A stretch of 64,000 nucleotides of DNA from Thermococcus sp. MV5 (GTDB taxonomy: Archaea; Methanobacteriota_B; Thermococci; Thermococcales; Thermococcaceae): contig NZ_SNUE01000003.1 in NCBI RefSeq assembly GCF_012027425.1, positions 124,001-188,000 on the forward strand. Reading direction: 5' to 3'. The stretch's first letter is position 1, and the number at the start of each line of letters is the position of its first letter. This document shows, one piece after another, positions 2,785 through 26,517 of the stretch. A program made the translations under genes and the position numbers. The notes under the pieces were generated by a model. The model ran no database searches. It was not told the origin of the DNA and saw only the letters and a program-made list of their open reading frames with translations.

Positions 2785-5831
<3,047 letters not shown>

Positions 5832-17925: not shown

Positions 17926-18273
17926 TTAAAACTCGAATTCAACCCCATTTTCGTCTCCTTCCCACAAAACGATTTTGTAAAGTTTGATATTCTCCGGCAA
18001 GTTTGTTTTAATCTGTTCAGCAATCCATAGGGCTATGTTTTCTGTGGTTGGATTTTTAAATATTCTGTTGAGATTTTTATGTTTTAATGGTCCTATTGTC
18101 ATTTCTATTATTTTTCTTAGTTCCAGAAAGTCCATTATATAGCCTTCTTTAACTTCTCCTTCGATGTAAACCTCTCCTTTGAACGTATGGCCATGTATTT
18201 CTTCTGGTTCGCCATTAATTACTACAGCATGTGCGGCATCAAAACTAAACTTTTCTCTGAGCCTTGCCTTCAT
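17926..18273 (-). CDS. 6-pyruvoyl-tetrahydropterin synthase/QueD family protein lacking the catalytic Cys
   Basis: A 115-residue T-fold protein of the PTPS/QueD family. Zinc ligands are His15 (DAAHAV) and His27 and His29 (HGH). The usual catalytic Cys four residues before HGH is missing; the segment is GEPEEIHGH and the protein has no Cys at all. Archaeal PTPS variants with Glu in place of Cys are known to form 6-hydroxymethyl-dihydropterin from dihydroneopterin phosphate-type substrates for folate or methanopterin, so that role is more likely than queuosine/archaeosine synthesis. A TTENIALW segment near 76 matches the family substrate site. It precedes pncB on the same strand by 54 bases. 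Confidence 0.82.
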   Translation of the reverse strand: MKARLREKFSFDAAHAVVINGEPEEIHGHTFKGEVYIEGEVKEGYIMDFLELRKIIEMTIGPLKHKNLNRIFKNPTTENIALWIAEQIKTNLPENIKLYKIVLWEGDENGVEFEF

Positions 18274-18317
18274 ACTTTCACCAGAGAGATTTGATTCAAG
18301 AGTTAAAATACTTTGCT

Positions 18318-18350
18318 GACCTCCTCCCTGCCTTAAAAGACGAGGCTTTC
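18318..18350 (-). mobile_element. Suspected IS200/IS605-type end remnant
   Basis: On the minus strand this reads GAAAGCCTCGTC, then TTTTAAGGCAGGGAGGAGGTC. That pattern resembles the ends of IS200/IS605 (TnpB) elements common in archaea. Its first 11 bases recur exactly at 55663-55673 next to a second remnant. No transposase gene or partner end is nearby; the surrounding 274 bases between the pterin enzyme and metG otherwise hold only an A/T-rich promoter (18490-18515). Confidence 0.4.
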
Positions 18351-18547
18351 AAAAGAAAAATGTAAGTCTCAATGATAAGGCTTTTGGAGGAGAGTGGATA
18401 AGAATTCAAGTGCCAAAAGTCTCTTGGAATAGAGGACCGATATATATTACTAGGCATATTTTCATGAGATGAAAATAACCCACCGTAATATTTAAAATTG
18501 GCGAGAACTTATAAAGGGCAGCGAGTTAGTCTTTGGGGGTGATAGGA

Positions 18548-20731
18548 GTGAGGTTCACGGTAACATCTGCTTTGCCTTATGCTAATGGCCCTATCCATGC
18601 AGGGCATTTGGCCGGAGCTTATCTACCAGCGGATATATTCGTACGTTACTTGAGGTTAAAAGGAGAGGACGTTGTATTTATATGTGGAACGGATGAGCAT
18701 GGTACACCAATAACTTTCAGAGCTCTTAAAGAAGGAAAGAGCCCAAGGGAAATAGTTGATTACTATCATGAGCACATCAAGACAACTTTTGAGAGGGCTA
18801 AAATTAGCTTTGATTACTTTGGTAGAACTGAGCTCCCGGTTCATTATCGTATAAGTCAGGAGTTCTTCCTTAAAGCTCTTGAAAATGGTTACTTAGTTAA
18901 GAAAGTTGAAAAACAAGCTTATTGTGAGCACGATAAAATGTTCTTACCTGACAGGTATGTTATTGGAACATGTCCTTACTGTGGTGCAGAAGAGCAAAGA
19001 GGAGATCAATGTGAAATCTGTGGACATCCATTGACCCCGGAGAAGCTTATAAATCCGAAATGTAATATCTGCGGAAACTCAATTACCTTTAGGGACTCAG
19101 CCCATTACTATATACGAATGCAAGACTTTCAAGAAAAACTTAAGGATTGGGTTCTTAAGCAAGAACACTGGAAATCAAATGTTAGAAACACTGTGTTAGG
19201 ATGGATTAATGAAGGTTTGGAAGAGAGAGCAATAACCAGGGATTTAAGTTGGGGAATTCCGGTTCCGCTAGAAGATGAAGATGTTAAAGGAAAAGTCCTT
19301 TACGTATGGTTTGAAGCTCCAATTGGTTATGTATCAATAACAATAGAACACTTCAAAAAGCTTGGGAGAGAGGATGAGTGGAAAAAATACTGGTTTAACA
19401 TTGATGGTGAGACAAGGGTGATTCATTTCATTGGAAAAGATAACGTTCCATTCCACGCCATATTCTGGCCAGCATTCCTAATGGCTTATGGAGAGTATGA
19501 AGAGAATAATGCTAAGTTTGAATGGAACCTTCCATATGACATCCCAGCAAACGAATACCTAAATCTTGAAGGAAGAAAGTTCTCAACAAGCAGAAATTGG
19601 GCTATATGGGTCCATGAGTTCCTTGATTCATTTCCTGCAGACTATTTGAGATACTACCTAACGGCCATAATGCCTGAAACAAGGGACAGTGACTTCAGCT
19701 TTGAGGACTTCAAAAAGAAAATAAACGAAGAACTTGTGAACAATCTTGGAAATTTTGTACATCGAGCACTGACCTTTGTGAACAGGTATTTTGATGGAAG
19801 GGTTCCAGAAACTGGAGAACTTGATGATCTTGATAGAAAAGCACTTAAAGAAATTGAAAAAACCTTTGAGGAAGTAGGTAGGCTTATTTCGAGATATCAG
19901 TTCAAGGAAGCTCTCAAGAGGGTAATGGCCCTAGCAATCTTTGGAAACCAGTACTTTGACTATCAGAGGCCATGGAAGACTGCTAAGACTGATAAAGTTA
20001 GAACAGGAACTACAGTAAATATTTCTCTCCAGTTAGTTAAGGCTCTTGGGGTCCTTCTTGAGCCGTTTCTTCCAGATGCAAGCGAGAAAATCTGGCATCT
20101 GCTTAACATTGAGGAAGTGAAAAGATGGGAATTCATTCCATTAGAAGCAGGCCACAAAGTTAGAAAGGCTGAAATTCTCTTTAGAAAGGTCAGTGATGAG
20201 GACATTATAACATATGTAGTTAACTACATAGGCAAAGGAAATCCAGAAAGCGCAAGAATTCTCTTAGATAAGTACTACAAAATGGAGGATGTTATTAAGA
20301 TAGCTAGAGAAAGACTTGGAGATGAAAGTGAGACAATTCTTAGGAGGATTTATGGGGAGAAAATGAAAACTATGCCTAAAAGAGAAAAAAAGGAGGGTAG
20401 TAAAGTGAGCTATGTGAAATTTGAGGAATTTGCAAAACTTGACATAAGAATTGGGAAGATAATTGGTGTTGAAGACCATCCAAATGCAGACAAGCTTTAC
20501 CTGATTAAGGTGGATCTTGGAAATAAAATCAGACAACTCGTAGCAGGACTGAAGAGATACTATAAAAAGGAAGAGTTGCTCAATAGGTATGTAGCTGTAA
20601 TAACAAACCTTGAGCCTAAGAAGCTCAGAGGAATCGAGAGTCAGGGGATGATCTTGGCCGCAGATGATGGCAAAAACGTTGCTTTGCTAACTCCAGAAAA
20701 AGAAGTTAAACTTGGGGCAAAGGTGAGGTGA
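18548..20731 (+). CDS. metG: Methionyl-tRNA synthetase
   Basis: Charges initiator and elongator tRNA-Met. The 727-residue protein starts at the GTG at 18548, after GGGGGTGATAG. The HIGH-type motif is HAGH at residues 17-20, and the KMSKS loop is KFSTS near 345. The connective peptide holds zinc knuckles CPYC, CEIC and CNIC between about residues 139 and 177. The C-terminal domain from about residue 620 (FAKLDIRIGKI ... HPNADKLY) is a Trbp111-type tRNA-binding and dimerisation domain, fused here rather than separate. A TATA-like tract lies near 18490-18515. Confidence 0.97.
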   Translation: MRFTVTSALPYANGPIHAGHLAGAYLPADIFVRYLRLKGEDVVFICGTDEHGTPITFRALKEGKSPREIVDYYHEHIKTTFERAKISFDYFGRTELPVHYRISQEFFLKALENGYLVKKVEKQAYCEHDKMFLPDRYVIGTCPYCGAEEQRGDQCEICGHPLTPEKLINPKCNICGNSITFRDSAHYYIRMQDFQEKLKDWVLKQEHWKSNVRNTVLGWINEGLEERAITRDLSWGIPVPLEDEDVKGKVLYVWFEAPIGYVSITIEHFKKLGREDEWKKYWFNIDGETRVIHFIGKDNVPFHAIFWPAFLMAYGEYEENNAKFEWNLPYDIPANEYLNLEGRKFSTSRNWAIWVHEFLDSFPADYLRYYLTAIMPETRDSDFSFEDFKKKINEELVNNLGNFVHRALTFVNRYFDGRVPETGELDDLDRKALKEIEKTFEEVGRLISRYQFKEALKRVMALAIFGNQYFDYQRPWKTAKTDKVRTGTTVNISLQLVKALGVLLEPFLPDASEKIWHLLNIEEVKRWEFIPLEAGHKVRKAEILFRKVSDEDIITYVVNYIGKGNPESARILLDKYYKMEDVIKIARERLGDESETILRRIYGEKMKTMPKREKKEGSKVSYVKFEEFAKLDIRIGKIIGVEDHPNADKLYLIKVDLGNKIRQLVAGLKRYYKKEELLNRYVAVITNLEPKKLRGIESQGMILAADDGKNVALLTPEKEVKLGAKVR

Positions 20732-20789
20732 GTCTTCTCTCCATTTTATGATTGTTGGATAAATTGAGAAAGAATGGTGAGAGAGTAAC

Positions 20790-21635
20790 TCAAAGCTTGA
20801 GTTCCACCCAGTTTTCTTTTCTTCCTTTGATTATTTTCACTAACCCTTGCTTTTCAAGACGTTTGAACATTCTCCAAGCTGTAGTTTTTGGTATCTCCAG
20901 AGCAGTTCTCACTTCTGCTTGGCTGGCTCTTCCACCTTTCTCTAAGATATAAAGTAATGCTCTTCTTTCATCTTCGTTTAGATTAAAGGATTCGAGTTTT
21001 TTCAAGAATTCTTCTTTGTCTATGTGGATTTCTGTTCTTTTGGGCTCTTTTCTCCTATTTCTGGCAAGGACAATAGAAATCAAGAGTATAAGCACCAAAA
21101 TTCCTAATGGTAGGAGATACTTGCCATAACTTTGTCCTTCCTCTGCAGGAGTTTCTTTGAATTCCAAAGTGTACGATATACTTTGATTTCCGGGGGGCAT
21201 TGTTATCACATTGGAGGCTATCTTGAGCGGCACTTCTGAAAGATCCACAACGACGGCATTTTCTGGTAGGATTATATTAAAGGGGGAGTCACTAGAAACA
21301 TTAATCGTCCACACCAGTCCCTCTTTATATGTAATGTCTGGGGTATAATAGGAAACATCAACTATTTGAGCCTCGCCAACGTATATTACTATATATCTGT
21401 CGTAAATCTCGAAATTTAATGGACTGTTATTTTCATCAACGACCGCCAGTCCTTCGTAATTTTCTCCCAAAAATGGCAGAATTATCTGGGAGGAGTATTC
21501 ATCGGGAATTATTTGATAATGAACTTTGACATACCCATCGATGTACACAGTTAGTTCCATCTCAGAGACTGTAAATTGGGCACTGATAAGGGGTAAAATT
21601 GTAAGGATGCTGATTAAAGCTAAGATTTTCTTCAT
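20790..21635 (-). CDS. Membrane-anchored winged-helix transcription regulator
   Basis: 281 residues in three parts. A signal peptide (residues 1-19, ending LISAQ) leads into an extracellular beta-rich domain of about 150 residues. A single membrane helix follows at about 174-192 (LLPLGILVLILLISIVLA), then a basic RNRRKEPKR stop-transfer. The cytoplasmic C-terminal winged helix-turn-helix spans about residues 220-281 (ASQAEVRTALEIPKTTAWRM). This fits the archaeal COG2512-type membrane-associated regulators, thought to sense something outside and act directly on DNA; ligand and targets are unknown. It lies 12 bases after the coiled-coil gene fragment on the same strand, so the two are probably one operon. 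Confidence 0.82.
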   Translation of the reverse strand: MKKILALISILTILPLISAQFTVSEMELTVYIDGYVKVHYQIIPDEYSSQIILPFLGENYEGLAVVDENNSPLNFEIYDRYIVIYVGEAQIVDVSYYTPDITYKEGLVWTINVSSDSPFNIILPENAVVVDLSEVPLKIASNVITMPPGNQSISYTLEFKETPAEEGQSYGKYLLPLGILVLILLISIVLARNRRKEPKRTEIHIDKEEFLKKLESFNLNEDERRALLYILEKGGRASQAEVRTALEIPKTTAWRMFKRLEKQGLVKIIKGRKENWVELKL

Positions 21636-21647
21636 CTCCCACCCTCC

Positions 21648-22376
21648 TTAGGAATTTGCATTTATGAATTCCTCCACCTCTCTGAGAAGCCTGTTTGCTC
21701 GTTGCAAGTGCAGAATTGCACTGTTTACATTGTTTTTCTTAATGAGGTTAATTGCTATAGAAAACTCATTAATTGCACCCCTTAGCTGAATTTCTGCTCT
21801 TGTAGTATTTACCCCCTTCTTCCGTAAGATGGCAAGGGCTGTGGCATCTTTTCTAATCCTTTCCTTCGTCTTCACTAGAAACACTTCTGTGTTCATTTTT
21901 TCTCTTTTCATCTTTTCAATTACCGTGAAGAATCCTATCATATGGGCTGCGTTTTCTCTGATCACTCTAAGGGCCTCTCTCCATTTTCCTTCATTCGCTA
22001 AGTGGGCGACCTGTAGGTATATTTCTCTTATCTCTTCCACGTTTTTTTCTGCTTCTTCAGTATCTCGTCCCATTGATTTTGCGTATTCAATTGCGTTTTC
22101 AGCTATTGTAAGACTTTGATTAGTCTTTATCAGGAAGGATTCCACAATCCTCTCTGCATTTTTTGAAGCAAGCTTAGTTGTAACATCTCTAATCTCTCTA
22201 TCGAGTTCTATTTTCTTTTGTTTTGCCTTTTCTAGGCTTATTTTAGCCTCTTCAAGGTTTCCAGCCTTTAGATATTCAAGAACCTCATTATAAGCAGTTT
22301 TAGCTTCAACATAAGCCTTGATCAAAGTCTCTACATCTATCCCTTTACTTTTTGCTGCTTCTATAAGCTTTTCCAC
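21648..22376 (-). pseudogene. Coiled-coil/helical protein, C-terminal fragment of a frameshifted gene
   Basis: A 242-residue, highly charged alpha-helical frame beginning at GTG 22376 by the longest-ORF rule. The same frame stays open upstream to a TGA near 22430, adding about 17 plausible residues (LRTQIQEESTRIFAYFTYV) with no start codon or ribosome binding site. That extension abuts the stop of the secreted protein at 22427-22801. A one-base change in GTTTAAG would join the two into a single secreted protein of about 380 residues. The fragment is made of long amphipathic helices with Glu/Lys/Arg heptads and two TPR-like repeats. It has no membrane segment of its own. Read as the rear part of one broken gene; a sequencing error would look identical. 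Confidence 0.65.
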
Positions 22377-22426
22377 ATACGTAAAGTATGCGAAGATCCT
22401 GGTGCTCTCTTCTTGAATTTGCGTTC

Positions 22427-22801
22427 TTAAACTTCAGGAGTTTTTTCATCTTCTTCGAGGGCCTTGAGAATCTCTTTGTAGTACCTCATTGCAGCCAGAG
22501 AATATTGGATTGCTTGGGGATAGTTTCCATTTTGGTATTCGGTAAGAGCTTTTTCTTTAAGCTCTTTGGCTTTATCGTAGTCTTTTAGGAGATTCTCAGG
22601 TAATCTACTTTTTACCGGTTTTACTCTTATATCTACTAAAGTGCTAAGTTTTGTCAGCTGATTTATAATCTCTCCAGCGATGCTCTCATTATTTTGTTCG
22701 CCTAAATATTCACTAGTTGATTGATTTTGGGCAAAAGTGGCCCCTATGGGAATTAAACCTCCAATTAAGATAAGCATCAACCAAATGCCACTAAATTTCA
22801 T
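22427..22801 (-). CDS. Secreted helical protein, N-terminal fragment of a frameshifted gene
   Basis: 124 residues. The ATG at 22801 follows GGGTGAGGG. A clear signal peptide (FSGIWLMLILIGGLIPIGATFAQ) is followed by an Asn/Ser-rich linker and a helical hairpin (AKELKEKALTEYQNGNY, TPR-like). It stops at GAAGTTTAA, exactly where the downstream helical frame becomes open. I read this as the front of one protein continued at 21648-22426. No enzymatic motif is present. The operon then continues into the membrane-anchored regulator, suggesting that the secreted or surface helical protein and the regulator share a function. A palindrome lies about 50-75 bases upstream. Confidence 0.7.
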   Translation of the reverse strand: MKFSGIWLMLILIGGLIPIGATFAQNQSTSEYLGEQNNESIAGEIINQLTKLSTLVDIRVKPVKSRLPENLLKDYDKAKELKEKALTEYQNGNYPQAIQYSLAAMRYYKEILKALEEDEKTPEV

Positions 22802-22851
22802 AATCCCTCACCCAAATGTATGTTGAATTGTACATCACTTTAGGAACTCGG

Positions 22852-22877
22852 CGAAACGAAAGTTCCATATCGTTTCG
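22852..22877. promoter_or_regulatory. Palindromic operator candidate upstream of the secreted-protein/regulator operon
   Basis: CGAAACGA (22852-22859) and TCGTTTCG (22870-22877) form an 8-base perfect inverted repeat with a 10-base spacer. On the minus strand an A/T-rich TATA-like tract (22881-22895) lies just upstream of it, so the palindrome would cover the transcription start of the operon. The operon encodes a winged-helix protein, so autoregulation is a natural guess. Repeat seen; function inferred. Confidence 0.5.
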
Positions 22878-22981
22878 TTCTTTTATTTTAATTGTGATTA
22901 GAATCTTTAATAAGTTTGGGCTTAGAATTCCATCTAGTTTGGGAATTTTGATAAGTTTAGAGAGATAGTGTAAAAATAAAA

Positions 22982-23746
22982 TCAAGGGATTGGATATCCA
23001 AGTCCTTTAAGAATCATCCTGACTGCCAATAACGCCATAATAACTGCAAAAGCTTTTGTTAAGCTGCTTGCTTTGGTTCTTTTTGCTATTCTTGCCCCTA
23101 TTTGGGCACCAACTATCAAACCAGGGATGAGCAGAAGGAGCCACTCCACCTCGACATTACCAAGCATATAGTGCTTCAAGGCTCCGCTCGTAGCTGTGAA
23201 CACAATAGCAAAGCTTGATGTAGCAACCGCATAATGAATTGGCAGTCCGATATAGGTTAAAAAAGGCACGTTTATAGCTCCTCCACCGATTCCAAGTAAC
23301 CCACTTGCTATTCCGGCTATGAATCCGCCTATTGGGACAATTTTATAGTCCAGCTTCACTTGGTTTAAGTCAACTTCGTGGGGTTCTCTGCTCTTTTTAC
23401 GATAAAGTTTTATTGCCACTAAGAAGAGGACGACACCGAAGATCACTTTGAGTTGGGTAGCACTTATATAACTAGTCATCCATGCTCCAATATAAGCTCC
23501 TACTACTGCTGTACTGGCTAAAAGGAGGCCTACTTTGTAGTGTATCCTTTTTTGTCGAGAGTAGGCTATAGCAGAGCTTAGAGAAGTGAACACGACAGCA
23601 GCTGAGGATGTTCCAACTGCATGATGGATTTTGACTCCCAAAAGGTTTAGGGTTGGCACTATTAAAAATCCTCCTCCCAGACCAAATAAAGCGGCTAATA
23701 TTCCTATGAATATTCCGACTCCAAAGTATCCTAAAGATTTAAGCAA
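22982..23746 (-). CDS. TSUP/TauE-SafE family anion exporter
   Basis: A 255-residue polytopic membrane protein with about eight helices arranged as two homologous halves, each opening with a glycine-rich signature: FGLGGGFLIVP near residue 19 and GIGGGAINVP near 157. The family moves sulfite, sulfoacetate, taurine or related organosulfur anions; substrate here is unknown. I choose the TTG at 23746 because GGAGGTGATTCC sits directly upstream; the longer frame begins inside the preceding gene. It follows the M42 peptidase on the same strand with a 13-base gap, so they may be cotranscribed. Confidence 0.85.
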   Translation of the reverse strand: MLKSLGYFGVGIFIGILAALFGLGGGFLIVPTLNLLGVKIHHAVGTSSAAVVFTSLSSAIAYSRQKRIHYKVGLLLASTAVVGAYIGAWMTSYISATQLKVIFGVVLFLVAIKLYRKKSREPHEVDLNQVKLDYKIVPIGGFIAGIASGLLGIGGGAINVPFLTYIGLPIHYAVATSSFAIVFTATSGALKHYMLGNVEVEWLLLLIPGLIVGAQIGARIAKRTKASSLTKAFAVIMALLAVRMILKGLGYPIP

Positions 23747-23759
23747 GGAATCACCTCCA

Positions 23760-24758
23760 TTACTCAAGTTCAAACACTAACGCCTCGATTAGTTTTATTA
23801 AAGCTTCTAGATCTTTTATGTGTAGCATTTCAGTTTCACTGTGGAGGTATTTTATGGGGACACTCAATGCTAAGGTTTGGCTTTTAGTTTCGAATACTGA
23901 TGCATCAGTTCCTCCTCCAGTAACACCAATTTGTATAGAAATGTTGTTCTTTCGTGCTATCTCAAGGACCTTTCTTGCTAAAGAAGGGGTGTATATGGCT
24001 GAATTGTCAACGGCTCTTATAACTGCTCCTTTTCCTAATTTTACATCTCCAGTTAGGGATGAGCAGCATGCAAAGGAATCCACGGCTATAGCATATTTGG
24101 GAGAATAAGTATTTGCTAGGAATTTTGCGCCTTTAAGACCAATCTCTTCTTGAACTGTGAATGCGAAGATGTACTTACCATCTAAATCATGATCAACTAA
24201 ATTTTTTATCGCCTCTACAAGAGCAACAGCTCCAAATCTATCATCCAGGGATCTCGTAACTACATATTTCTCATTCAAGACGCTAAAGTGCTTCTTAAAA
24301 ACAGCAAAATCAAGTACTTTGACTCCCATTCTCTCAGCTTCTTCTTTTGATTCCGCTCCAATGTCTATTTCTAAAGCATGCCATGGAAGGGTTTCAAATT
24401 TTCTCTCTAAGTTCAAATGGACTGGAGTAACCCCTATCACTCCGTCAACCTTTCCTTTTTCGGTTATAAGCTCTATATGTCTGCCCAATAAGAGTCTATC
24501 ATCTATTCCACCAATTTTTCTAAACTTGAGCTTTCCATTTTTTGTTATCCCTGTTATTAGAAGTCCTATCTCATCCATGTGTGCCATGAAAATGGCCTTA
24601 TCCTCACCCTCTCCAAGCTCTACGATAAGATTTCCTATTGTGTCTACTCTACAATCAGCATATGGCTCTATCCATTCAATTAACTTTGTCCTTATCTCAT
24701 CTTCATATCCCGATATACCAGGGAGTTGGGTTATTTCTTTGAGCATCTTCACTAGCAT
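23760..24758 (-). CDS. M42 family (TET-type) aminopeptidase
   Basis: A 332-residue metallo-aminopeptidase of the M42 family, whose archaeal members form dodecameric tetrahedral TET particles that trim peptides released by the proteasome. The fold signature is intact: PGISGYEDEIR near 14, metal ligand His in FMAHMDEIG near 61, bridging Asp in SLDDRFGAVA near 176, catalytic Glu pair in QEEIGLKGA near 207, and GGGTDASVF near 286 with the last ligand His in YLHSETEM near 308. The ATG at 24758 follows GGTGA; a GTG three codons earlier overlaps that site. It fits a peptide-fermenting lifestyle. Confidence 0.93.
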   Translation of the reverse strand: MLVKMLKEITQLPGISGYEDEIRTKLIEWIEPYADCRVDTIGNLIVELGEGEDKAIFMAHMDEIGLLITGITKNGKLKFRKIGGIDDRLLLGRHIELITEKGKVDGVIGVTPVHLNLERKFETLPWHALEIDIGAESKEEAERMGVKVLDFAVFKKHFSVLNEKYVVTRSLDDRFGAVALVEAIKNLVDHDLDGKYIFAFTVQEEIGLKGAKFLANTYSPKYAIAVDSFACCSSLTGDVKLGKGAVIRAVDNSAIYTPSLARKVLEIARKNNISIQIGVTGGGTDASVFETKSQTLALSVPIKYLHSETEMLHIKDLEALIKLIEALVFELE

Positions 24759-24875
24759 GGTTTTCACCTAAAAAATAACCTGATTTAAACTACTTAAAGT
24801 TTTTTAATAGCGTTAAGATATAGGTCTTAATGAGGTACTTGAATTTCTTTTAATTTTTGTCAGCTAAACTTTAAA

Positions 24876-24913
24876 AACCCCGGTGGGGTTATTTATAAAG
24901 GGTTTTTAAACCC
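24876..24913 (+). promoter_or_regulatory. tbp promoter flanked by two palindromes
   Basis: TATA element TTATTTATAAAG at 24889-24900. Directly upstream is AACCCC-GGT-GGGGTT (24876-24890) and directly downstream GGGTTT-TT-AAACCC (24900-24913), both perfect inverted repeats. The TATA box is well placed for a start near 24920, giving a very short leader with GGAGGTG at 24921-24927. The palindromes could be operators for control of the general factor TBP; that is inference. Confidence 0.6.
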
Positions 24914-24933
24914 AGCTTAAGGAGGTGCAAAAC

Positions 24934-25503
24934 TTGGTTGACATGAGCAATGTGGAGCTTAGAATAGAGAATATCGTCGCGTCAGTGGATCTTTTTGCTT
25001 CACTAGACCTTGAGAAAGTTATAGAGATATGTCCTCATTCAAAGTATAATCCAGAGGAGTTCCCAGGGATAATATGTCGCTTTGATGAGCCAAAAGTTGC
25101 TCTTCTGGTATTTAGTTCTGGAAAACTTGTTGTAACTGGAGCAAAGAGTGTTGAGGATATCCAGGCAGCGGTTTCAAAGCTCGTTGAAATGCTTTCAAAG
25201 ATTGGGACTAAATTCAGCAGGGCTCCTGAAATAGATATTCAGAATATGGTGTTTAGTGGCGATCTTAAGATGGAGTTTAATCTCGATGCCGTTGCTCTTG
25301 TGTTGCCCAACTGTGAATATGAGCCCGAACAGTTTCCGGGTGTCATATATCGTGTTAAGGACCCCAAGGCGGTTATACTCCTCTTTAGCTCTGGAAAGAT
25401 TGTTTGTAGTGGTGCAAAGAGCGAACATGATGCATGGGAGGCTGTTAGAAAGCTTCTTCACGAGCTTGATAAATATGGGCTTATTGAAGAAGAGGAATTC
25501 TAA
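24934..25503 (+). CDS. tbp: TATA-box-binding protein
   Basis: General archaeal transcription initiation factor. The 189 residues hold two direct repeats of the saddle fold; compare [20 protein letters not shown] in the first half with [20 protein letters not shown] in the second. DNA-kinking Phe residues are conserved in each half. It ends in a short acidic tail (EEEEF), as in Pyrococcus and Thermococcus TBP. The TTG at 24934 (MVDMSNVE) is chosen because GGAGGTG precedes it by six bases and P. furiosus TBP begins the same way; the GTG nine bases earlier overlaps that site. An HDAC-like gene follows on the same strand after 30 bases. Confidence 0.97.
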
Positions 25504-25533
25504 TCTTTTTCCTACTTTTCCAAGGGGGCGGCT

Positions 25534-26517
25534 ATGAAGATTTTGTATTCAGAGGTCTTTAAAGATCATAAACCAGAGGGATATCATCCTGAAAACCCAA
25601 AAAGGCTTGAATTTATGATTGAGGGACTTAAGGAACGTGATCTCTGGATTAATGTTGAGCAGCCTCCGATGGCCGAGATAAATGATATTTTAAAAATTCA
25701 TTCAAATGAATACGTTGAAAAGATAAGAAGGTATTCTGAAAGTGGATTCTCTTTTGTGGATCCAGACACTTACATTTCTCATGGTACCTGGAAAGCTGCT
25801 CTCACAGCTTTTGGGGCATCTATGCAAGTGGCAAAGCTTGCACTCAGAAAGAATGACATTTATTTGGCTTTGGTTAGACCTCCAGGACATCATGCAGGCA
25901 AAGAAGGAAGAGTTCTTAGTGCACCTACTCTTGGTTTTTGCATATTTAATAATGCTGCAGGAGCGGCATTAACGCTGAAAGAAAAAGCTGGAAGGGTCGT
26001 TATAATAGATTTTGATGTTCATCATGGCAATGGTACGCAGGATATATTTTGGAATGATGGAGGTGTTATTCATATAGATCTCCATGAAAGTGGGATCTAT
26101 CCAGGGAGTGGCGACATATATGAAATTGGCGGTAAAAGTGCAGAGGGGAGTAAAATAAACCTTCCAATGCCGCACTATTCAAAAGATGATGATTACATCT
26201 TCGTTTGGCAGGAAATAGTCCTTCCCATTTTAGAGGATATCGGGCCACGGGCCATTGTGGTCTCAGCGGGCTTTGATGCCTTTAAAGGGGATGGCTTAGC
26301 TACAATGGAGCTGAGTGAGAGATTTTATCACTTTGCTGGGGCTTCGCTTTCAAGGTTCAGTTTGGCCGTTATTCTTGAAGGAGGATACGGTGTGGGCTTA
26401 AGAAAAGGTCTTCCTTCTTTTATTGAGGGTTATCTCGAAGGAAAGCCTGAACTTGGAAAGATTTCTCCAAGATATGAAACAATTAAGGTCGTTGAAGAGG
26501 TTAGAAGTCTAGTTTGA
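25534..26517 (+). CDS. Histone-deacetylase superfamily amidohydrolase
   Basis: A 327-residue zinc hydrolase of the arginase/deacetylase fold. All catalytic elements are visible: RPPGHHAG near 113-120 with the catalytic His pair, FDVHHGNGTQD near 157-167 with the zinc Asp and His, HESGIYPGSGD near 183, AGFDAFKGD near 248 with the second zinc Asp, and LEGGYGVG near 285 with the transition-state Tyr. Archaeal members may deacetylate acetylpolyamines, lysines or small molecules; with bpsA in the window polyamine deacetylation is a reasonable idea but unproven. It lies 30 bases after tbp. Confidence 0.88.
   Translation: MKILYSEVFKDHKPEGYHPENPKRLEFMIEGLKERDLWINVEQPPMAEINDILKIHSNEYVEKIRRYSESGFSFVDPDTYISHGTWKAALTAFGASMQVAKLALRKNDIYLALVRPPGHHAGKEGRVLSAPTLGFCIFNNAAGAALTLKEKAGRVVIIDFDVHHGNGTQDIFWNDGGVIHIDLHESGIYPGSGDIYEIGGKSAEGSKINLPMPHYSKDDDYIFVWQEIVLPILEDIGPRAIVVSAGFDAFKGDGLATMELSERFYHFAGASLSRFSLAVILEGGYGVGLRKGLPSFIEGYLEGKPELGKISPRYETIKVVEEVRSLV

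What the first reader, a model, noticed from the sequence alone, without database searches (positions are those of the whole stretch)
20790..22877. Candidate sensing module: secreted helical protein, membrane-spanning winged-helix regulator and palindromic operator
The regulator has signal peptide, outer beta domain, one membrane helix and an inner winged helix, so it could transmit an external signal directly to DNA. It lies 12 bases after the secreted protein, and an 8-base perfect palindrome (CGAAACGA/TCGTTTCG) sits where the operon start should be. Ligand and mechanism (clustering, proteolytic release) are unknown.
Basis: partly seen in the sequence, partly recalled or inferred. Interest (0 to 1): 0.55.

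Follow-up and report, generated by a model that had tools for sequence, protein, structure and literature searches.

The report
Membrane-spanning archaeal gene switch and regulon
A heat-loving archaeon carries a protein that crosses the cell membrane, with a sensor-like part outside and a DNA-binding part inside, and the same short DNA site in front of its own operon also stands in front of a small set of mostly cell-surface genes in related species, which suggests a direct outside-to-DNA switch.

Summary
The finding is real and larger than described. The regulator (REG, 20790-21635, minus) has a signal peptide, an outer beta-sandwich, one membrane helix and an inner winged helix. The "secreted helical protein" is two window ORFs (22427-22801, 21648-22376) that form one secreted all-helical protein (HEL) in 36 of 37 related copies read; the window copy is frame-broken.

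It overlaps one that is: GRAAC-N5-GRAAC-N4-GTTYC-N5-GTTCC directly before a TATA-like box. A sequence model finds it at E<=1e-6 in 65 of 67 Thermococcaceae genomes with a close REG and in 0 of 6 without REG (four of those six are incomplete assemblies). It also precedes genes outside the model's training set, for example all 7 intact LamG-type genes found. It recurs before HEL-REG in family f4 and, by position only, in f2.

Best explanation: an autoregulated transmembrane one-component regulator, probably an activator, that reads a cell-surface state and switches on secreted helical proteins and other envelope genes. DNA binding, ligand and sign of control are inferred. New variant of a known kind (transmembrane transcription regulators).

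The parts
20790..21635 (-). REG: signal peptide, outer beta-sandwich, one membrane helix, inner winged helix (281 aa)
21162..21581 (-). REG outer beta-sandwich domain (residues 19-158)
   Evidence: pLDDT mostly above 90; fold like OST1/ribophorin I and M1/M61 peptidase N-domains
21054..21125 (-). REG membrane helix (residues 171-194), followed by basic residues (inside)
   Evidence: sequence
20793..21017 (-). REG winged helix (residues 207-281), recognition helix around residues 250-262
21648..22376 (-). HEL, downstream piece (helical; out of frame with its signal-peptide piece in the window)
22427..22801 (-). HEL, upstream piece with the signal peptide
22836..22886 (-). conserved operator-promoter element (model R1 match, 46.1 bits, E 1.7e-13; the window sequence is in the model's training set)
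22872..22876 (-). half-site 1, GAAAC
22862..22866 (-). half-site 2, GGAAC (left arm of the core)
22853..22857 (-). half-site 3, GTTTC (right arm of the core)
22843..22847 (-). half-site 4, GTTCC, in the position of the BRE
22836..22842 (-). TATA-like box TAAAGTG (TAAAATA in most sites read)
22806..22812 (-). Shine-Dalgarno-like GGTGAGG before the HEL start codon (ATG, 22801-22799)
   Evidence: spacing

Best explanation
REG is a membrane-anchored one-component transcription regulator. Its outer beta-sandwich reads a state of the cell surface, and its inner winged helix binds a GRAAC-N4-GTTYC palindrome (usually with further half-sites at 10-bp steps) placed at fixed distance just before the TATA box of a small regulon. 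The regulon is its own HEL-REG operon, paralogous HEL operons and, depending on the species, LamG, PMT_2-type, ABC-transporter, DUF257 and small-protein genes. Because these promoters lack the usual A-rich BRE and keep a fixed operator-to-TATA distance, REG most likely acts as an activator that helps recruit TFB/TBP. HEL, the most frequent target, is a secreted helical surface protein that is probably the main output, and possibly a feedback ligand of the REG outer domain. Shown: architecture, conserved element, its positions, co-occurrence. Inferred: that REG is the binder, activation, the signal, the role of HEL.
For: Domain order and fold. HEL-REG pair and gene order conserved. Element conserved before orthologous and paralogous operons. 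Family scan of 94 genomes: E<=1e-6 in 65 of 67 with REG E<1e-60, in 6 of 21 with only weaker REG, and none at E<=1e-3 in 6 of 6 without REG at E<=1e-25. Outside the family: upstream of HEL-REG in f4 (3 of 3 genomes scanned, E<=8e-5) and, by position only, in f2 (2 of 4, E 0.06 and 0.12); none at E<=1e-3 in 5 of 5 f3 genomes, which lack REG. Gene classes absent from training: 7 of 7 intact LamG genes, DUF257, PMT_2, ABC. Geometry in 64 hand-chosen sites: core-to-GTTCC gap 5 in 60; SD-like motif 28-31 nt after the TATA start in 53. Anchored on the core alone (50 of the 64 with at most 1 mismatch), TAAAATA stands in fixed register and the 6 bases before it hold 26 A of 300, against 85 of 180 in 30 other promoters of the window.
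Against: No binding or expression data. Another factor that travels with REG could bind the element. Six genomes with only weaker REG relatives have sites at E<=1e-6, and 3 of the 7 LamG genomes (G022, G036, G115) have only weaker REG. Of the 6 REG-less genomes only G002 and G010 are at least 90% complete (others 69-82%), and G010 keeps a site at E 0.00103 beside a decayed small-protein gene. Geometry counts come from sites mostly found with the model. Several orthologues of genera g1 and g4-g6 also have an A-rich BRE/TATA about 33-36 bp upstream of the operator (by eye), which would put the operator downstream of that start site, as a repressor would sit. PMT_2, ABC and f2 sites miss the usual SD distance (0 of 7). 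Weak small-protein relatives in genus g3 mostly lack the site. Nothing ties HEL physically to REG.
Confidence: 0.7

Rival explanations
1. REG binds the same operator but represses: it blocks TFB/TBP or RNA polymerase until a surface signal releases it.
For: The fourth half-site covers the BRE position; some orthologues have a canonical-looking BRE/TATA upstream, so that the operator would lie over or after the start site (by eye); many TrmB/MarR relatives repress (recalled).
Against: Fixed operator-to-TATA register across different target genes and the non-A-rich BRE (26 A of 300) are what an activator-dependent promoter would need. In the genus g3 sites read, the upstream promoter was not seen (by eye).
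Confidence: 0.25
2. A different, cytoplasmic factor binds the element; REG is only one of its targets.
For: No binding data; 6 of 21 genomes with only weaker REG relatives still have sites at E<=1e-6; L066, whose site was in training, has a diverged recognition helix.
Against: No site at E<=1e-3 in the 6 REG-less family genomes (four incomplete) or the 5 f3 genomes; the site stays with HEL-REG in family f4. The site-bearing paralogues whose ends were printed share TAWRMFxRLE, L066 excepted.
Confidence: 0.13
3. The element acts as RNA: a hairpin in the 5' leader.
For: The core is palindromic, and an upstream promoter would place it in a leader.
Against: No Rfam match in window 18000-26000; G/A swaps in GRAAC against an unchanged GTTCC do not covary (by eye); the distance of the TATA-like box to the SD puts the element upstream of the start site. 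No covariation test was run.
Confidence: 0.04

Closest known systems
Transmembrane transcription regulators (TTRs), survey PMC10269533 (passages)
   Same: One protein with a membrane helix and a DNA-binding domain that could regulate from the membrane; the survey names Thermococci among clades in which TTRs are a high share of signal-transduction genes
   Different: Here operator, regulon and a secreted partner are proposed; outer N-terminal domain and C-terminal winged helix
ArnR/ArnR1 of Sulfolobus (PMC6396743, search listing only; described in a passage of PMC13286277)
   Same: Archaeal membrane-bound one-component regulators
   Different: ArnR/ArnR1 have the helix-turn-helix in the N-terminal region; REG has a signal peptide, an outer beta domain and a C-terminal winged helix
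EarA of Methanococcus and Pyrococcus (passages of PMC13286277)
   Same: Works like: winged-helix positive regulator bound upstream of a promoter; BRE mutations bypass it, so it is thought to recruit TFB
   Different: Not described there as a membrane protein; archaellum genes as targets
TrmB/MarR winged-helix families
   Same: DNA-binding domain (Pfam TrmB 36.9 bits against cut-off 25.6; MarR-type structures at Z about 11)
   Different: NCBIfam TrmBL1 far below cut-off; membrane-anchored, with an outer domain
CpxP/CpxA-type envelope feedback (recalled)
   Same: Works like: a secreted, autoregulated helical protein encoded with a membrane sensor
   Different: No kinase; no relation tested

Membership tests
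Transmembrane transcription regulator (TTR) | Predicted DNA-binding domain and at least one transmembrane region in one protein | tested here: met
Transmembrane transcription regulator (TTR) | Regulates transcription from the membrane | not testable with these tools
   needs binding and expression assays
ArnR/ArnR1 | Helix-turn-helix in the N-terminal region | tested here: not met
   REG winged helix is C-terminal
TrmB | TrmB-type winged helix | tested here: met
   PF01978 36.9 bits, cut-off 25.6
TrmB | Full-length TrmBL1/TrmB equivalog models | tested here: not met
   NF047390 14.6 bits against cut-off 650; NF047392 13.4 against 500
Csa3 (CRISPR-associated CARF) | TIGR01884 above cut-off | tested here: not met
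   21.3 bits against 60.2
OST1/ribophorin I and M1 peptidase N-domain fold (outer domain) | Same beta-sandwich fold over the whole domain | tested here: met
   Z 13.6, rmsd 2.6 over 140 residues to 8agb_E; Z 11.5 to 4fgm. Fold only, 11% identity; no shared function shown
EarA | Activates through a weak BRE | not testable with these tools
   BRE position is A-poor; activation itself needs an experiment

The most novel reading that the evidence does not exclude
An ancient archaeal cell-envelope surveillance regulon: a single transmembrane protein with an OST1/ribophorin-I-like outer domain senses the state of secreted or glycosylated surface proteins (with the helical HEL proteins as readout and feedback ligand) and, without leaving the membrane, pulls BRE-poor promoters to itself through a 10-bp-periodic half-site array. 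HTH-less REG paralogues under the same operator would act as decoy receptors.
Probability: 0.2. Interest if true: 0.75.

Novelty: new variant of a known kind. Interest (0 to 1): 0.58.

Why it matters
Transmembrane one-component regulators are counted by the thousand (50,302 in PMC10269533, passages), yet few archaeal ones have a known operator (my reading, not a search result). Here one family comes with a predicted operator, a fixed promoter geometry, a target list and a co-transcribed secreted partner, so DNA binding from the membrane and control of BRE-poor promoters become directly testable in Thermococcus.

Tried and rejected
Exact palindrome as the conserved unit: rejected (2 of 24 orthologous promoters). 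RNA element: no Rfam hit in 18000-26000. Fold search of HEL: no PDB match at E<=0.001; its Pfam hits in the window are below cut-off. Literature: the searches listed no paper that I could tie to this regulator or operator (locus tags were guessed from recall); the library is open-access only and listings were capped, so this does not show that it is undescribed. PMC3407056 and PMC4463584 were looked at by passages and added nothing on these genes.

My first count of bases at the BRE position (33 A of 434) was anchored on a pattern that itself forces some non-A letters; I replaced it by a count anchored on the core alone.

Small-protein test: 38 of 94 genomes have a hit at E<=0.01; I scanned the 30 loci returned. 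A first scan mis-oriented minus-strand loci and was redone. There a site near the start is found at G000, G008, G009, G003, G006, G016 and G020. G024, G025 and G092 were missed or misplaced by that pattern although R1 finds a site beside the gene. G010 and G061 copies are decayed; G007 is broken and has no site. The weak genus-g3 hits scanned have none beyond chance; G077 and G087, not among the 30, have R1 sites. One small-protein promoter (L066) was in the training set, so this class is not fully independent.

LamG test: the simple pattern finds a site in 5 of 7 intact genes (one, G115, with a wider core spacer); it misses G110, whose locus is cut short so that my start was misplaced, and G036, whose site has a longer spacer. 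R1 finds all 7; I read five of them in sequence, G110 and G115 by coordinates only.

Weak sites (E>0.001) were mostly taken as chance. Of those read, G003:353552, G006:C23 and G004:C115 stand before DUF257-like genes, while G012, G014, G048 and G002 lie inside ORFs on the other strand. In f2, the best matches of G037 (C40) and G043 are not at HEL-REG. Of the sites, those beside REG matches in genomes G061-G117 were mostly not fetched and are placed by coordinates only; G076:C2 and G113:C27 sites were not fetched; the listing was cut at its end. Output was cut in its middle.

Full report
What is in the window. The minus-strand ORF 20790-21635 (REG, 281 aa) starts 12 bases after the ORF 21648-22376. 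Its C-terminus matches winged-helix families above cut-off (TrmB 36.9 bits, HTH_24, MarR_2, DUF7343). AlphaFold2 on a 24-sequence alignment gives mean pLDDT 83, a beta-sandwich at 19-158, a membrane-length helix at 171-194 and a winged helix at 207-281. The basic stretch after the membrane helix places the winged helix inside (inference). The outer domain aligns best with OST1/ribophorin I of oligosaccharyltransferase (Z 13.6, 140 residues, rmsd 2.6) and with M1/M61 peptidase N-domains (Z about 11.5); the winged helix with MarR/ArsR-type regulators (Z about 11). This is a shared fold, not a shared function.

The secreted partner. The ORF next to REG has no signal peptide; the one before it (22427-22801) has. 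In 36 of the 37 HEL copies listed for relatives both are one ORF, mostly 375-430 codons from stop to stop among orthologues. The exception is the fragmentary L038. In the window a one-base length difference breaks the frame. The genome is a draft in 101 contigs, so an assembly error is possible. AlphaFold2 of an intact relative gives an all-helical array (pLDDT 80) with no PDB match at E<=0.001. HEL can change faster than REG: in G009, REG is 97% but HEL 59-63% identical.

The operator. Aligning 25 promoters of orthologues and paralogues shows GRAAC-N5-GRAAC-N4-GTTYC-N5-GTTCC before a TATA-like box. In 64 sites that I picked from those read (the window's own not among them), the gap between core and GTTCC is 5 in 60, the inner spacer is 4 in 50, and an SD-like motif lies 28-31 nt after the TATA start in 53; the misses include all 2 PMT_2, 3 ABC and 2 f2 sites. 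Sites in f4 and f2 keep the core but not half-site 1 (0 of 5). Anchored on the core alone, 50 of 64 sites have at most one mismatch and TAAAATA follows in fixed register.

The regulon. A sequence-only model (R1) was run over 37 genomes and then over 94 Thermococcaceae genomes. With REG scored in the same 94, sites at E<=1e-6 occur in 65 of 67 genomes with REG at E<1e-60 (exceptions G062, with E 9e-5, and G111, with none), in 6 of 21 with weaker REG only (6 more at E<=1e-3, 9 with none), and in 0 of 6 without REG at E<=1e-25. Of those six, four are only 69-82% complete; of the two good ones, G010 shows a site at E 0.00103 in the laxer scan, beside a decayed small-protein gene. Many of the 65 sites are the REG operon itself and some were in training, so sites at gene classes outside training are more telling. 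A LamG-domain protein is present in 8 of 94 genomes; all 7 intact copies (G020, G022, G036, G079, G110, G114, G115) have an R1 site directly upstream (E 2.4e-4 or better), and the eighth, in REG-less G002, is a decayed fragment. Three of the seven (G022, G036, G115) have only weaker REG relatives.

Other genes read behind sites are a small protein of about 100 aa in several genomes, DUF257 proteins (G009, G008; weaker sites in G003, G006, G004), PMT_2-like proteins (G016, G087), an ABC transporter operon (G003, G015, G031), HEL genes followed by no REG (G068, G076, G078, G115) and one 818-aa protein (G109). Pfam was run on one member each of DUF257, PMT_2, LamG and the NEW3-domain protein of the ABC operon; the others were matched by eye. 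In the window's own genome there are three sites at E<=1e-3: this operon, a HEL operon whose REG paralogue lacks the winged helix (C3:196537-196590, L072), and the small protein (C1:339603-339635).

How it probably works. In T. onnurineus the TATA box lies at -30 to -20, an A-rich BRE is found for 85.5% of start sites and the median 5' leader is 12 nt (PMC5316973, passages). The TAAAATA box of the element fits this layout, but the six bases before it hold 26 A of 300 against 85 of 180 in 30 other promoters of the window. A regulator bound at a fixed place just upstream of a BRE-poor promoter fits an activator, as proposed for EarA in Methanococcus, where BRE mutations bypass it (PMC13286277, passages). 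Against this, several orthologues have an upstream A-rich BRE/TATA (by eye), which leaves room for a second promoter or for repression. The 10-bp spacing puts half-sites on one face of the helix, which suits several copies of a membrane-tethered protein (inference). What REG senses is unknown; most targets point to the cell surface (inference from signal peptides and domains).

Comparison. REG meets the definition of a transmembrane transcription regulator (PMC10269533, passages). It differs from ArnR/ArnR1, whose helix-turn-helix is N-terminal (passage in PMC13286277). The searches listed no paper that I could tie to this regulator or its operator; the library is open-access only.

Noticed in passing
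L072 (G000:C3:190000-199000), REG paralogue 4697-5278 minus: A HEL operon under the same operator carries a REG paralogue of 194 aa that ends after the membrane helix, without a winged helix; similar short paralogues are seen in other genomes of the genus. Possible decoy receptor.
   Followed up: partly
L035 (G009): REG is 97% identical to the window's but HEL only 59-63%, while the neighbours TauE, peptidase, MetRS and the TBP-like gene are 89-99%: fast change or exchange inside the operon.
   Followed up: no
L148, L154, L157 (G085, G087, G074): A site stands between similar neighbours (by eye) as the LamG gene of G022, but no LamG gene is found in these genomes at E<=1e-8: promoter left after gene loss.
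   Followed up: partly
L159 (G061) and L122 (G010): The site and the following bases shown are identical in a genome labelled g2 and one labelled g1: possible contamination of the G061 assembly.
   Followed up: no
L038 (G004): Both HEL and REG reading frames are broken in this fragmentary assembly.
   Followed up: no
window 22982-23773: TauE/SafE-family membrane protein upstream of the operon; many relatives have a second TauE-like gene between it and HEL.
   Followed up: no
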